DNA of 64,000 nucleotides from Azospirillum humicireducens. Lineage in GTDB: Bacteria > Pseudomonadota > Alphaproteobacteria > Azospirillales > Azospirillaceae. A program made the position numbers and the translations under genes. Shown piece after piece: positions 54,926 through 60,029 of the stretch. Under the pieces are notes generated by a model that worked only from the letters and a program-made list of their open reading frames with translations, did no database searches and was not told the origin of the DNA. Position 1 is the stretch's first letter; every line of letters begins with the position of its first letter. The stretch is from assembly GCF_001639105.2 (NCBI RefSeq), contig NZ_CP015285.1, forward strand, positions 2,906,001 through 2,970,000. The letters run 5' to 3'.

Positions 54926-55006
54926 CCCTCTCCCGCCTCTTGCACAAACTTTGTTTGTGCTGACGGCCTCAGGCGGATCGAAGCTCCGCTAAGAGCGGGG
55001 AGAGGG
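54926..55006. repeat. REP-like element with outer and inner hairpins
   Basis: Outer arms CCCTCTCCC (54926-54934) and GGGAGAGGG (54998-55006) are a perfect 9-base inverted repeat. Inside, GCACAAA (54942-54948) and TTTGTGC (54954-54960) form a 7-bp hairpin with a 5-base loop. The right arm encodes the last residues of the hemerythrin gene, so the repeat seems to have become part of that gene's 3' end. Confidence 0.6.
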
Positions 55007-55405
55007 AGACTCCCCGACATAGGGCTTGTACAGGCTGTCCGTCTGCTGGATGTGCTCCACGAACCAGTCCTTCAGCAGAAGGATCAGGTCGACTCGCAGC
55101 ATGGTGGGGTTGTCGCCCTCGAAATCGCGGGCCAGCTTCTCCACCTCGTCGGCGAAATAGCGGTGGGCGGCGAGATGGCCGTCCAGCTCGGGATAGCCGC
55201 AGCGCTCCATCATCGCCTCTTCCCGCGCGAAATGGACGGCGACATAATCCCGGAGACTGGCGAGCAGGCTGGACAGTTCCTCCCGGTTGGCCGGGGTGAT
55301 GCCGCTTTCCAGCAGACCGTTGAACAGGTCGAGGAGCCGCCGATGCTCGTCGTCGAGCACGGCCACACCGACGCTCATGGATTCGTCCCAGGCGACATAG
55401 GTCAT
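54989..55405 (-). CDS. Bacteriohemerythrin
   Basis: A 138-residue single-domain hemerythrin with a complete set of di-iron ligands: His21 (LDDEHRRL), His58 and Glu62 (HFAREE), His77 and His81 (HLAAHRYF), His118 and Asp123 (HIQQTD). It should bind O2 (or NO) reversibly and may deliver or sense oxygen; microaerophilic bacteria often carry several. The start at 55405 is preceded by GGGGAGG at 8 bases; the frame extends to 55447 without need. The last ~6 residues (SPSPRS region) are encoded by a REP-like arm and are not part of the family fold. It may be relevant that the neighbouring genes show no redox function. Confidence 0.92.
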   Translation of the reverse strand: MTYVAWDESMSVGVAVLDDEHRRLLDLFNGLLESGITPANREELSSLLASLRDYVAVHFAREEAMMERCGYPELDGHLAAHRYFADEVEKLARDFEGDNPTMLRVDLILLLKDWFVEHIQQTDSLYKPYVGESPSPRS

Positions 55406-55623
55406 CGCAGCGACCTCCCCCTCGCATCCCGCGAATTCAAGCGCCATCCGCCCTCATTCAAGCGGTTGCGGCCGGCCATGGCTGGGTTGTGGACATCTTG
55501 ACAGGGATCCTAAAACCGGCAACCGTGCCCGTCCAAGCGGCAAATCCCCGCAGGGGGCGCGGCATGATGCGCCAAGCGCTTCTCAAACCGACCGAATCCC
55601 GCCCCACCAGACCAGAGTGACCG

Positions 55624-56382
55624 ATGGCCCTGCTCGACGAGATCGCGGAGAAGAAACGGGCGCTGGACGCGGCCCGCCCCCTGCCGCAGGAGGTCGTGCA
55701 TGGGATCGCCGACCGGTTCGAGCTGGACCTAACCGTCGCCGCCGCAGGGCTGGAGGAGGTGCCGGTCAAGCCCGCCGACGTCAAGGCGATCCTGGAGCGC
55801 GGCAGCATCCTGCGCCATCGCGCAGTGGAGGAGCAGCGCTTCGTACTGAACCATCGCGCGGCATTGGAGCTGATGGCGCGGCTGTCCTTCGATCCGGCAG
55901 GCGCCGTGACCGAACGCACGGTCGCTGCCTTCCACAGCGTGCTGCATCGCGGGATCGAGGACGAGGCCGGCAAGTACCGCAACGGCCCGCCGAAGGACGA
56001 TCCGGCGGAGACGGCACCCGATCCGGCCAAGCTGCGCGTGTCGATGTCGGCGCTGTCGACCTGGATGCGCAAGTCGGACGCCGGTCCCGACACCGCCTTC
56101 GAAGCGCATCACAAGCTGAGCGCCATCCGCCCCTTCCACACCGGCAACCGGGCCACGGCGCTGCTGCTGTGCAACCTGATCCTGAACCGCGCCGGCTACC
56201 CGCCGGTGGTGGTCCTGGCGGAGGACCGCGGACTCTATCTCGACCTCGTCGAACGGGCCTGGGCGGTCGGCGACAAGACGCCCTTCCGCGACCTGATGAT
56301 GCGCTTCCTGTCGCAGAGCCTGGATTTCTGCCTGCAGGCAGCCGGAAAGGGCGAGCCGGACGAGCCCGTCAGCCTGCCCTGA
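55624..56382 (+). CDS. Fic-fold protein with a degenerate active site
   Basis: A 252-residue protein with the Fic/DOC helical fold. Residues 160-190 align without gaps to the Fic signature: IRPFHTGNRATALLLCNLIL against the usual IHPF-x2-GNGR-x2-R. The catalytic His is Arg169, the second Gly of GNG is Arg, and both the following Arg and the last Arg are changed (Ala and Leu). The flanking NRAGYPPVVVL and the N-terminal GSILRHRAVEEQ/VLNHRAALEL also fit the fold. AMP transfer by the standard mechanism therefore looks impossible. It may be a pseudoenzyme, binding protein or an enzyme with different chemistry. Start ATG 55624. It converges with the CocE-fold gene (20-base gap). Confidence 0.82.
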   Translation: MALLDEIAEKKRALDAARPLPQEVVHGIADRFELDLTVAAAGLEEVPVKPADVKAILERGSILRHRAVEEQRFVLNHRAALELMARLSFDPAGAVTERTVAAFHSVLHRGIEDEAGKYRNGPPKDDPAETAPDPAKLRVSMSALSTWMRKSDAGPDTAFEAHHKLSAIRPFHTGNRATALLLCNLILNRAGYPPVVVLAEDRGLYLDLVERAWAVGDKTPFRDLMMRFLSQSLDFCLQAAGKGEPDEPVSLP

Positions 56383-58296: not shown

Positions 58297-60006
58297 TCAG
58301 GCGGCAATCAGCTCGAAGCGGTCGACGTCGACCATGCCGCGGTCGGTGATCTTCAGATGCGGGATCACCGGCAGCGGCAGGAAGGCCAGTTGCAGGAAGG
58401 GTTCGGCCAGCGGGCAGCCCATGGCGCGGACGGCGGCGCGCAGGGACCGCAGCTTCGCCTCCACCGTCTCGAACGGCTCCAGGCTCATCAGCCCGGCCAG
58501 CGGCAGGGCCAGTTCGCCCACCACCTTGCCCTCGCGCACGGCGACGAAGCCGCCCTGCAGTTCGATCAGCCGGTTGACCGCGATCCGCATGTCGGCGTCG
58601 CTGGCCCCGACCACGCAGATGTTGTGGCTGTCATGGCCGACCGACGAGGCCAGCGCGCCCTCCGGGAAGCCGAAACCCTGGACGAAGCCGCGGCCGATGT
58701 TGCGGTTGCTGCCATGGCGGGCGAGGACACAGATCTTCAGGAGGTCTCGCGACGGATCGGCCACCATCCGGCCGCCCACCGCCGGCACCTCGATCCGGCG
58801 ATGTTCGGTCAGGATCTTCCCCGGCTCCAGCCCGATCACCGACTGGACAGACCCGCCGGCCGGCACGGCGAAATCCTCCTCCGCCACCGGCTCAAGCTTC
58901 ACCGAGTCCAGCCCGACCGGCGTCACCGCCGGCCGGCCGCCGAAGCTGTGCGGACCGACGAGGCGACCATTGCGGATGACCCGGTTGACCGCACACTCCT
59001 CCAGATCGTCGAGCAGGACGAGGTCGGCGCGATGACCCGGCGCCACCAGCCCGCGGTCATACAGGCGGAAGCCGCGGGCGGCCGACCAGGTGGCGGCGCG
59101 GTAGACATGGGCGACCGGGGCACCCAGGCGGATGGCGCTGCGGATCAGGTGATCCATGTGCCCCTCCTCCGCGATGTCCAGCGGGTTGCGGTCGTCGGTG
59201 CAGAAGCCCAGGAAGGGCGAGGTCTCGGGACCGATGACTTCGGCCAGGGCATGGACGTCCTTCGACACCGACCCGTCGCGGATCAGCACCTGCATGCCCT
59301 TGCGCAGCTTCTCCATCGCTTCCGCAGCGCTGGTGGTCTCATGGCAGTTGCGGATGCCGCAGGACAGATAGGCGTTCAGTTCCTTCCCCGACACCAGCGG
59401 GGCGTGGCCGTCGATGTGGCGGCCGTCGAAGGCGGCCAGCTTGTCCAGCACCCCGTCCACCTTGTGGAAGACGCCGGGGAAGTTCATGAACTCCGCCAGC
59501 CCCAGCACGCGGGGATGGTCCATGTGGCGGATCAGGTCCGGCGCCTCCAGCCGCGCCCCGGATGTCTCCAGCTCCGTCGCCGGCACGCAGGAGGACAACT
59601 GCACGAACAGGTCGAGCACCGTCCCGCCGGCACTGTCCAGGAAATAGCGCAAGCCTTGCTCGCCCAGCACGTTGCAGATCTCGTGCGGATCGCAGATGGC
59701 GGTGGTGGTGCCGCGCGGCAGGACGCACCGGTCGAATTCCTGCGGGGTGACGCAGGTGGATTCACAATGGAGGTGGGTGTCGATGAAGCCGGGAACCACG
59801 GTCAGCCCGCGCCCGTCGATCTCCTCGACCCCATCGTAGGACTCGTAGGTGCCGACGATGACCTCGCCGCAGACGGCGATGTCGCCTTCGGCGATCTCGC
59901 CGGTCACGACATTGAGAAAGCGCGTGTTCTTGATGACCAGATCGGCCTTCGCCTCGCCCAGCGCCTGCCCGATGCGCGTCTTCAGATCGTCCCGGCTGAT
60001 TGCCAT
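58297..60006 (-). CDS. ade: Adenine deaminase
   Basis: A 569-residue amidohydrolase of the Ade type, converting adenine to hypoxanthine and ammonia in purine salvage. Metal-site motifs: VVPGFIDTHLHCES and TTTAICDPHEICNVLG; further GHAPLVSGKELNAYLSCGI, FCTDDRNPLDIAEEGHMD and the C-terminal SSVGHDSHNICVVG region. Start ATG 60006 lies right before the conserved N-terminus and follows a G-rich stretch (GGGGTGGG). It is 23 bases downstream of the GNAT-like gene on the same strand and may be the last gene of a four-gene run. Confidence 0.95.
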   Translation of the reverse strand: MAISRDDLKTRIGQALGEAKADLVIKNTRFLNVVTGEIAEGDIAVCGEVIVGTYESYDGVEEIDGRGLTVVPGFIDTHLHCESTCVTPQEFDRCVLPRGTTTAICDPHEICNVLGEQGLRYFLDSAGGTVLDLFVQLSSCVPATELETSGARLEAPDLIRHMDHPRVLGLAEFMNFPGVFHKVDGVLDKLAAFDGRHIDGHAPLVSGKELNAYLSCGIRNCHETTSAAEAMEKLRKGMQVLIRDGSVSKDVHALAEVIGPETSPFLGFCTDDRNPLDIAEEGHMDHLIRSAIRLGAPVAHVYRAATWSAARGFRLYDRGLVAPGHRADLVLLDDLEECAVNRVIRNGRLVGPHSFGGRPAVTPVGLDSVKLEPVAEEDFAVPAGGSVQSVIGLEPGKILTEHRRIEVPAVGGRMVADPSRDLLKICVLARHGSNRNIGRGFVQGFGFPEGALASSVGHDSHNICVVGASDADMRIAVNRLIELQGGFVAVREGKVVGELALPLAGLMSLEPFETVEAKLRSLRAAVRAMGCPLAEPFLQLAFLPLPVIPHLKITDRGMVDVDRFELIAA

Positions 60007-60029
60007 AACCCACCCCGACTGTCGTCCAT

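What the first reader, a model, noticed from the sequence alone, without database searches (positions are those of the whole stretch)
55624..56382. Fic-fold protein with every key active-site residue replaced
The signature aligns gap-free as RPFHTGNRATAL in place of HPFxxGNGRxxR: the catalytic His, the anion-binding Gly and both Arg residues are changed. The surrounding fold sequence is well kept, so this is not simple decay. It may be a pseudoenzyme or have new chemistry, as seen with other degenerate Fic proteins.
Basis: partly seen in the sequence, partly recalled or inferred. Interest (0 to 1): 0.58.

Follow-up and report, generated by a model that had tools for sequence, protein, structure and literature searches.

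The report
Dead Fic enzyme kept by Azospirillum
Soil bacteria of the genus Azospirillum keep one copy of a Fic-type enzyme whose catalytic machinery is gone but whose fold and a new set of fixed residues are preserved, which points to a protein that now works by binding rather than by adding AMP to other proteins.

Summary
The ORF at 55624-56382 (+) is a 252-aa Fic protein (Pfam E 2.6e-9). Its signature reads RPFHTGNRATAL: catalytic His, metal-site Asp/Glu, second Gly and both Arg are replaced; Pro, Phe, Gly-Asn and the inhibitory Glu (E44) are kept. It is not a local mutation: all 45 Azospirillum genomes searched carry an orthologue, with R169 (the catalytic-His site) and E44 in 45 of 45. Metal, Gly and first-Arg sites drift; seven positions switched to a new, nearly or fully fixed residue. 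Close pairs give median dN/dS 0.11. The model superposes on FICD (Z 27) with a disordered flap. In 23 of 45 genomes it is the only Fic-domain match, so helping another Fic is unlikely in general. Best reading: a genus-core pseudo-AMPylase held in the inhibited form and used as an Arg-rich binding module; the partner is unknown. Degenerate Fic proteins are in print, so this is a new variant of a known kind. In 43 of 45 loci it lies head to head with a hemerythrin gene.

The parts
55624..56382 (+). pseudo-Fic gene, 252 aa, present in all 45 Azospirillum genomes searched
55732..55758 (+). remnant of the inhibitory helix motif (S/T)xxxE(G/N): residues 37-45 TVAAAGLEE; E44 kept in 45 of 45, the S/T position is A 23, C 21, G 1
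55954..56034 (+). degenerate flap, residues 111-137: model pLDDT under 50; A115, G116, Y118, R119, D133, A135 and K136 invariant, the part between them changed or variable
56128..56163 (+). degenerate Fic signature, residues 169-180, RPFHTGNRATAL
55536..55552 (+). intergenic element AGCGGCAAANNNCCGCA, exact in 42 of 45 orthologous loci; one copy in this genome and one in each of 5 of 7 others searched
54989..55405 (-). divergent single-domain hemerythrin gene (start taken at MTYVAWDE; the ORF as listed starts at 55447), head to head with the pseudo-Fic in 43 of 45 loci

Best explanation
A genus-core pseudo-AMPylase. An ancestral class II (FICD-like) Fic protein lost its nucleotide-handling and catalytic residues, and probably its substrate-docking flap, and was kept as a non-catalytic binding module. 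SHOWN: the motif loss is fixed in the 45 genomes; the fold is predicted to be kept; selection is purifying; E44 and R169 are invariant; the counterparts of FICD's dimer-relay pair keep their charges (R66 for Lys256, Asp or Glu at 52 for Glu242); Arg residues are preferentially invariant; 23 of 45 genomes have no other Fic match. INFERRED: E44, which in FICD pairs with the second motif Arg (here Leu), now pairs with R169 at the old catalytic-His site and clamps the inhibitory helix over the dead pocket, so that the protein stays in the inhibited, probably dimeric, shape and presents a conserved basic surface to an anionic or protein partner. The partner is unknown. The neighbouring hemerythrin is at most co-regulated, since one genome has no match to it and keeps the pseudo-Fic.
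For: 45 of 45 genus genomes carry it. R169, P170, F171, G174, N175, A179 and E44 are 45 of 45, while position 173 takes nine residue types, 176 four and 177 three. Against 14 motif-bearing outgroup Fics, seven positions have switched to a new residue: R66, Q71, R138 and R169 in 45 of 45, S140 and L180 in 44, D125 in 43; the metal, second Gly and first Arg sites are relaxed. R169 uses all four CGN codons, so silent change occurs without replacement. Median dN/dS 0.114 over 154 close pairs of 946. AlphaFold2 pLDDT 77.6, pTM 0.79, flap residues 111-137 below 50; FICD Z 27.0, rmsd 2.6 over 221 residues. 12 of 21 Arg columns invariant against 58 of 221 others (Fisher p 0.005; not seen in the hemerythrin or CocE neighbours; six residue classes were tried). 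23 of 45 genomes have no other PF02661 match at E 0.001. The sister protein in another genus of the family has lost both charges (Q44, A169, with V at 180), and L086-L088 keep an acid (D44) together with the last Arg, as an acid-Arg pairing would predict. Glu234-Arg374 salt bridge and the Lys256/Glu242 relay in FICD: PMC6826200, passages. A FIC domain acting by protein binding without catalysis: PMC7842960, passages including the abstract.
Against: No binding partner, expression datum or biochemistry. The E44-R169 contact was not measured (the tool gives no coordinates). The sister grouping rests on a long branch (1.24) with 97/91 support, and that sister keeps an Asp at 173. R169 could also serve an anion or a new reaction. 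The Arg bias is modest after allowing for six tests. dN/dS by Nei-Gojobori in GC-rich genes is approximate: one close pair reaches 0.53 and the median over all 990 pairs was 0.38.
Confidence: 0.7

Rival explanations
1. New chemistry: the Fic fold was rebuilt into an enzyme of another kind, with R169 and E44 as new functional residues, as AvrB is a motif-less Fido fold that acts as a rhamnosyltransferase.
For: R169 and E44 in 45 of 45, with a set of switched residues. AvrB precedent: PMC2686095 passages, and title and abstract start of PMC10866546 in a listing. A Doc clade with Gln for the His is discussed in PMC4454073, passages.
Against: The D/E site, which AvrB fills with a conserved Arg that contacts the nucleotide, varies freely here (nine residue types). 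The second Gly and both Arg of the anion site are gone, and the flap that docks substrates is not modelled with confidence.
Confidence: 0.12
2. Regulator of another Fic protein: a dead copy that inhibits or heterodimerises with an active Fic.
For: Inhibitory Glu and relay charges kept. In-trans control between Fic proteins is reported for Campylobacter fetus (PMC5651007, passages), although there the proposed antitoxin Fic1 keeps its active site and the degenerate Fic2 is the toxin. 22 of 45 genomes have other Fic matches.
Against: 23 of 45 genomes, this one included, have no other PF02661 match at E 0.001.
Confidence: 0.06
3. Residual or altered phosphoryl transfer without the His, for example very slow AMP or phosphate transfer.
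For: A His-to-Ala mutant of one Fic domain kept some activity, as cited in PMC4454073 (passage).
Against: Here the metal site, second Gly and both Arg are lost as well, not the His alone.
Confidence: 0.05
4. Decaying gene without function.
For: Loss of the catalytic motif and many relaxed columns.
Against: 45 of 45 genomes keep it with no stop inside the match; median dN/dS 0.114 in close pairs; 70 invariant columns.
Confidence: 0.03

Closest known systems
FICD/HYPE and class II Fic proteins
   Same: Predicted fold over 221 residues (Z 27, rmsd 2.6, 25% identity), N-terminal inhibitory helix with its Glu, dimer-relay charges
   Different: Catalytic His, Asp, second Gly and both Arg lost; flap degenerate; no sequence outside the Fic core and its N-terminal helices
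Canonical bacterial class II Fic proteins (e.g. L066, L067, L071, L078)
   Same: Among the closest sequence relatives, 28-33% identity for L066, L067 and L071, L078 by profile; L067 lies in an Azospirillum genome
   Different: They keep HPFxDGNGRTAR and an SNAIEG inhibitory motif
Bartonella BepC FIC domain
   Same: Works like: a FIC domain reported to act by protein binding without catalysis (PMC7842960)
   Different: BepC keeps HxFxKGNGRxxR and was crystallised with an ATP analogue; it is an injected effector with a BID domain
AvrB
   Same: Fido fold that lacks the motif, His included, yet keeps small Pro and Gly residues of the loop (PMC2686095); among the structural matches, Z 10.6
   Different: Has an inserted upper lobe and a conserved Arg at the D/E site; reported as a glycosyltransferase (title)
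Campylobacter fetus Fic2 and Doc clade D2
   Same: Natural Fic/Doc proteins with degenerate motifs (PMC5651007; PMC4454073)
   Different: Fic2 keeps a His that its toxicity needs; D2 is described by a Gln at the His; neither is described with the E44/R169 pattern in the passages seen

Membership tests
Fic/Doc (Fido) fold family, PF02661 | significant match to the family profile | tested here: met
   E 2.6e-9, 38.2 bits, cut-off 24; the orthologous place is listed over the cut-off in the genus scan
Fic/Doc (Fido) fold family, PF02661 | Fic fold | tested here: met
   FICD 9yz5_A Z 27.0, rmsd 2.6, 221 aligned, on a predicted model of pLDDT 77.6
Fic AMP-transferase | HPFx(D/E)GNGRxxR signature | tested here: not met
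   RPFxxGN[ARTM][AST][TV]A[LM] in 45 of 45
Fic AMP-transferase | beta-hairpin flap that docks the target | tested here: inconclusive
   residues 111-137 pLDDT under 50, no strand called; outgroup flap residues changed
Fic AMP-transferase | transfer of AMP | not testable with these tools
   no biochemistry
Class II Fic (self-inhibited, N-terminal helix) | (S/T)xxxE(G/N) in an N-terminal helix | tested here: not met
   E44 kept 45 of 45, but the S/T position is A 23, C 21, G 1 and the G/N position is G in 24 only. It resembles this class by fold but lacks the full motif
Doc kinase toxin | HxFx(D/E)xNKR-type motif with an antitoxin gene beside it | tested here: not met
   motif absent; neighbours are hemerythrin and a CocE-type hydrolase. 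Doc motif from PMC4454073 and recall
AvrB-like Fido protein | conserved Arg at the D/E site and inserted upper lobe | tested here: not met
   position 173 takes nine residue types; 252 aa without a large insert. AvrB features from PMC2686095 passages
Pseudoenzyme | lacks catalytic residues by sequence, yet conserved and under purifying selection | tested here: met

The most novel reading that the evidence does not exclude
The old Fic pocket has been rebuilt around a fixed E44-R169 pair into a new functional site (a sensor or a new enzyme) that serves the low-oxygen life of Azospirillum together with the divergent hemerythrin, under a regulator that binds one dedicated site per genome.
Probability: 0.1. 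Interest if true: 0.78.

Novelty: new variant of a known kind. Interest (0 to 1): 0.5.

Why it matters
In the papers seen here, degenerate Fic proteins are discussed mainly as effectors or toxins. Here the dead copy is the one Fic-domain protein shared by all 45 genomes of a plant- and soil-associated genus, and in 23 of them the only one found. It offers a clean case to ask what a Fic fold is for when it cannot transfer anything. It also warns that the label 'Fic family protein' can hide non-AMPylases: 6 of the 13 Azospirillum plasmid records matched carry that name at this gene.

Tried and rejected
Tried: (1) This copy is just mutated: rejected, 45 of 45 share the change. (2) The motif should be read as Doc-like (NKRTA against NRATA): rejected, position 176 is Ala in 23 of 45, and the neighbours are not antitoxin-like. 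(3) Partner of an active Fic: weakened, 23 of 45 genomes have no other match. (4) Functional tie to the hemerythrin: kept only as linkage; G027 has no match to this hemerythrin at E <= 1e-15 and lacks the intergenic element but keeps the pseudo-Fic (L060). (5) The intergenic element as a known RNA: no Rfam family at gathering score in the window; one hit of 11.1 bits against a cut-off of 100 near it; predicted folds of four lineages disagree. (6) Defence or phage links: only weak matches to SoFic and PDC-S04 models and PHROGs of unknown function. (7) Distance between E44 and R169: could not be measured. (8) Literature: no paper held has Azospirillum with 'Fic domain' or with 'filamentation induced by cAMP'; the searches on degenerate or inactive Fic list no Azospirillum title. 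Passages only were seen of PMC5651007, PMC8401265, PMC7842960, PMC3667792, PMC4454073, PMC6826200, PMC2686095 and PMC4919030; of PMC10866546 only title and abstract start in a listing (a find in it returned nothing).

Choices that affect counts: the 14 outgroup Fics were chosen by me from the profile hits because they read HPFxxGNxR and are near, so 'H 14 of 14' is by selection. Eleven further hits with HPF or HPY (L068, L069, L070, L073, L074, L089, L090, L091, L096, L097, L098), L075 (QPF) and the duplicates L079 and L084 were left out of it. The tree left out L076, L077, L079, L084 (duplicates or genus rows) and L068, L074, L075. L035 lacks the first 32 residues and was left out of the close-pair dN/dS (44 rows, 946 pairs, of which 154 used) and the Arg count (44 rows); all 45 rows were used and the median over 990 pairs was 0.38, which I take to be inflated by saturation. 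In one search other residue classes were enriched in the neighbours (His in hemerythrin, Gly/Pro and Trp in CocE). In one search the reversed control pattern also hit once in G018 and once in G080. Of 20 loci of other Fic matches in the genus, 10 showed an HPF/HPY motif; 10 did not fit my expression and were not classified. The scans of class and phylum covered 385 and 398 genomes drawn from larger groups.

Full report
What is there. The ORF at 55624-56382 on the + strand starts with ATG and encodes 252 residues. Pfam Fic (PF02661) matches residues 95-187 at E 2.6e-9, and FICD is the best solved relative by sequence, E 1.4e-15. The signature is RPFHTGNRATAL without a gap against HPFx(D/E)GNGRxxR. 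His, the acidic metal ligand, the second Gly and both Arg are replaced; Pro, Phe and Gly-Asn are kept.

It is a fixed state, not a lesion. Record titles of the 19 near relatives found by scan name the genus Azospirillum. All 45 genus genomes searched have an orthologue (53-100% identity); of the 37 other genomes of the family, 4 have any match at E 0.001. Read out, the 45 orthologues all have R at the catalytic-His site and E at the inhibitory-Glu site. At R169 the codons CGC, CGT, CGA and CGG are all in use (30, 9, 3, 3), so silent changes occur and replacements do not. Among 154 close pairs (of 946) the median dN/dS is 0.114, the largest 0.528; over all 990 pairs the median was 0.38. No stop lies inside any of the 45 matches; one copy (L035) is cut by a contig end.

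What was lost and what was rebuilt. I compared the 45 with 14 near outgroup Fic proteins, chosen because they read HPFxxGNxR. Relaxed: the metal ligand (nine residue types at 173), the second Gly (four at 176), the first Arg (Ala, Thr or Ser at 177), the S/T and N positions of the inhibitory motif, and flap positions. Switched to a new residue: R66, Q71, R138 and R169 (45 of 45), S140 and L180 (44), D125 (43). Kept: 36 positions, among them E44, P170, F171, G174 and N175. By the alignment and FICD numbering (my count), R66 corresponds to FICD Lys256 and position 52 (Asp 33, Glu 12 of 45) to FICD Glu242, the two residues described as linking the FICD dimer interface to the inhibitory Glu (PMC6826200, passages). 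So the inhibitory half of the machine is conserved, and the catalytic half is not.

Structure. AlphaFold2 on 20 sequences gives pLDDT 77.6 and pTM 0.79, helices only, with residues 111-137 (the flap) below 50. FICD entries lead the structural comparison at Z about 26-27 with rmsd 2.6-2.8 over 216-224 residues; rows within 1 Z are tied. [quoted passage not shown]

Origin. In a tree of 41 rows the genus clade (100/99) joins L065, the protein of another genus of the family (G080), at 97/91. L065 is also degenerate, but differently: Q at the inhibitory Glu, A at the His site and V at the second Arg, with Asp kept at 173. Loss therefore probably preceded the genus, and the charges E44 and R169 go together: both present in Azospirillum, both absent in L065. 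L065 has a long branch (1.24), so this is a lead. A separate clade in another family (L086-L088) is degenerate in its own way, with D at the Glu site, QPF in two of three, and the last Arg kept. A canonical Fic (L067, HPFADGNGRTAR) exists in one Azospirillum genome beside the pseudo-Fic. The wider scans found no other R at the His site among the hits read: class, 385 genomes at E 1e-12, and phylum, 398 genomes at E 1e-20, both drawn from larger groups.

Not a helper of another Fic. A PF02661 scan of the 45 genomes finds exactly one match at E 0.001 in 23, this genome included: the pseudo-Fic itself. Of 20 loci of the other Fic matches, 10 read out with HPF/HPY motifs and 10 did not fit my expression and were not classified. 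The dead protein is in all 45; the others are patchy.

Neighbourhood. A single-domain hemerythrin gene lies head to head in 43 of 45 loci; of the other two, one is cut by a contig end and one (G027) has no match to this hemerythrin at E 1e-15. A CocE-type hydrolase was found downstream, convergent, in 41 of 45 stretches held. In the three most divergent loci (L061-L063) a phosphoribosyltransferase (Pfam Pribosyltran for L061; adenine phosphoribosyltransferase is my reading) and MlaE-type transporter genes (Pfam MlaE for L061) follow instead. Between hemerythrin and pseudo-Fic lies AGCGGCAAANNNCCGCA: exact in 42 of 45 loci, 56-138 bases before the pseudo-Fic start; of the rest, L011 differs in its first base (my reading), L035 is cut, L060 lacks it. 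It occurs once in this genome and once in each of 5 of 7 others searched; the two without it are G027 and G080, the latter outside the genus; the reversed control pattern hit once each in G018 and G080. It matches no Rfam family at gathering score.

Arg residues. 12 of 21 Arg columns are invariant against 58 of 221 others (Fisher p 0.005), a bias not seen in the hemerythrin (p 1.0) or the hydrolase (p 0.73) from the same loci; six residue classes were tried, and the neighbours show enrichments of their own. This suggests, but does not show, a conserved basic face.

Mechanism I commit to (0.7). A non-catalytic class II Fic descendant kept as a binding module. Shown: fixed loss of catalytic residues, predicted fold kept, purifying selection, fixed E44 and R169, kept relay charges, no other Fic match in 23 of 45 genomes. 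Inferred: E44, which pairs with the second motif Arg in FICD, is now neutralised by R169, clamping the inhibitory helix on a dead pocket and holding one shape, probably a dimer, whose basic surface binds a partner. New chemistry (0.12) is the main rival; AvrB shows that a motif-less Fido fold can be an enzyme.

Novelty. Degenerate Fic and Doc proteins, and a FIC domain acting without catalysis, are in print. No paper held joins Azospirillum with a Fic domain under the two wordings tried. The new part is a dead Fic that is the one Fic-domain gene shared by the 45 genomes of a free-living genus, with H-to-R and the inhibitory Glu both fixed.

Noticed in passing
window 55536-55552: AGCGGCAAANNNCCGCA, exact in 42 of 45 orthologous loci and single in each of the 6 of 8 genomes where it was found, between the divergent hemerythrin and pseudo-Fic genes; no Rfam match at gathering score; looks like a dedicated operator or leader element.
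   Followed up: partly
L086, L087, L088: A separate degenerate Fic lineage in another family of the class: Asp at the inhibitory Glu site, QPF in two of three, GNAC or GNGA in place of GNGR, last Arg kept.
   Followed up: no
L065:748-1545 (-): Sister dead Fic in another genus of the family with Q at the inhibitory Glu, APF and GNLVVAV; no hemerythrin found in the 6.5 kb stretch held.
   Followed up: partly
protein positions 45 and 176: Covary in the genus: Gly45 with Ala or Met176 in 24 of 45, Glu, Asp or Arg45 with Arg or Thr176 in 21 of 45; may be few events on the tree.
   Followed up: no
window 58297-60009 and L061:5943-6455: Adenine metabolism genes may lie near the pseudo-Fic in different lineages (adenine deaminase here; in L061 a phosphoribosyltransferase that I read as adenine phosphoribosyltransferase); may be coincidence.
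   Followed up: no
locus in NC_016624.1 and other Azospirillum records: The locus lies on plasmid records of 0.44-2.05 Mb in 13 Azospirillum entries, while here it is on contig 1 near 2.96 Mb.
   Followed up: no
L060 (G027): The one genus genome without any match to this hemerythrin at E 1e-15 keeps the pseudo-Fic; an AcrB-type pump gene lies directly upstream there.
   Followed up: partly
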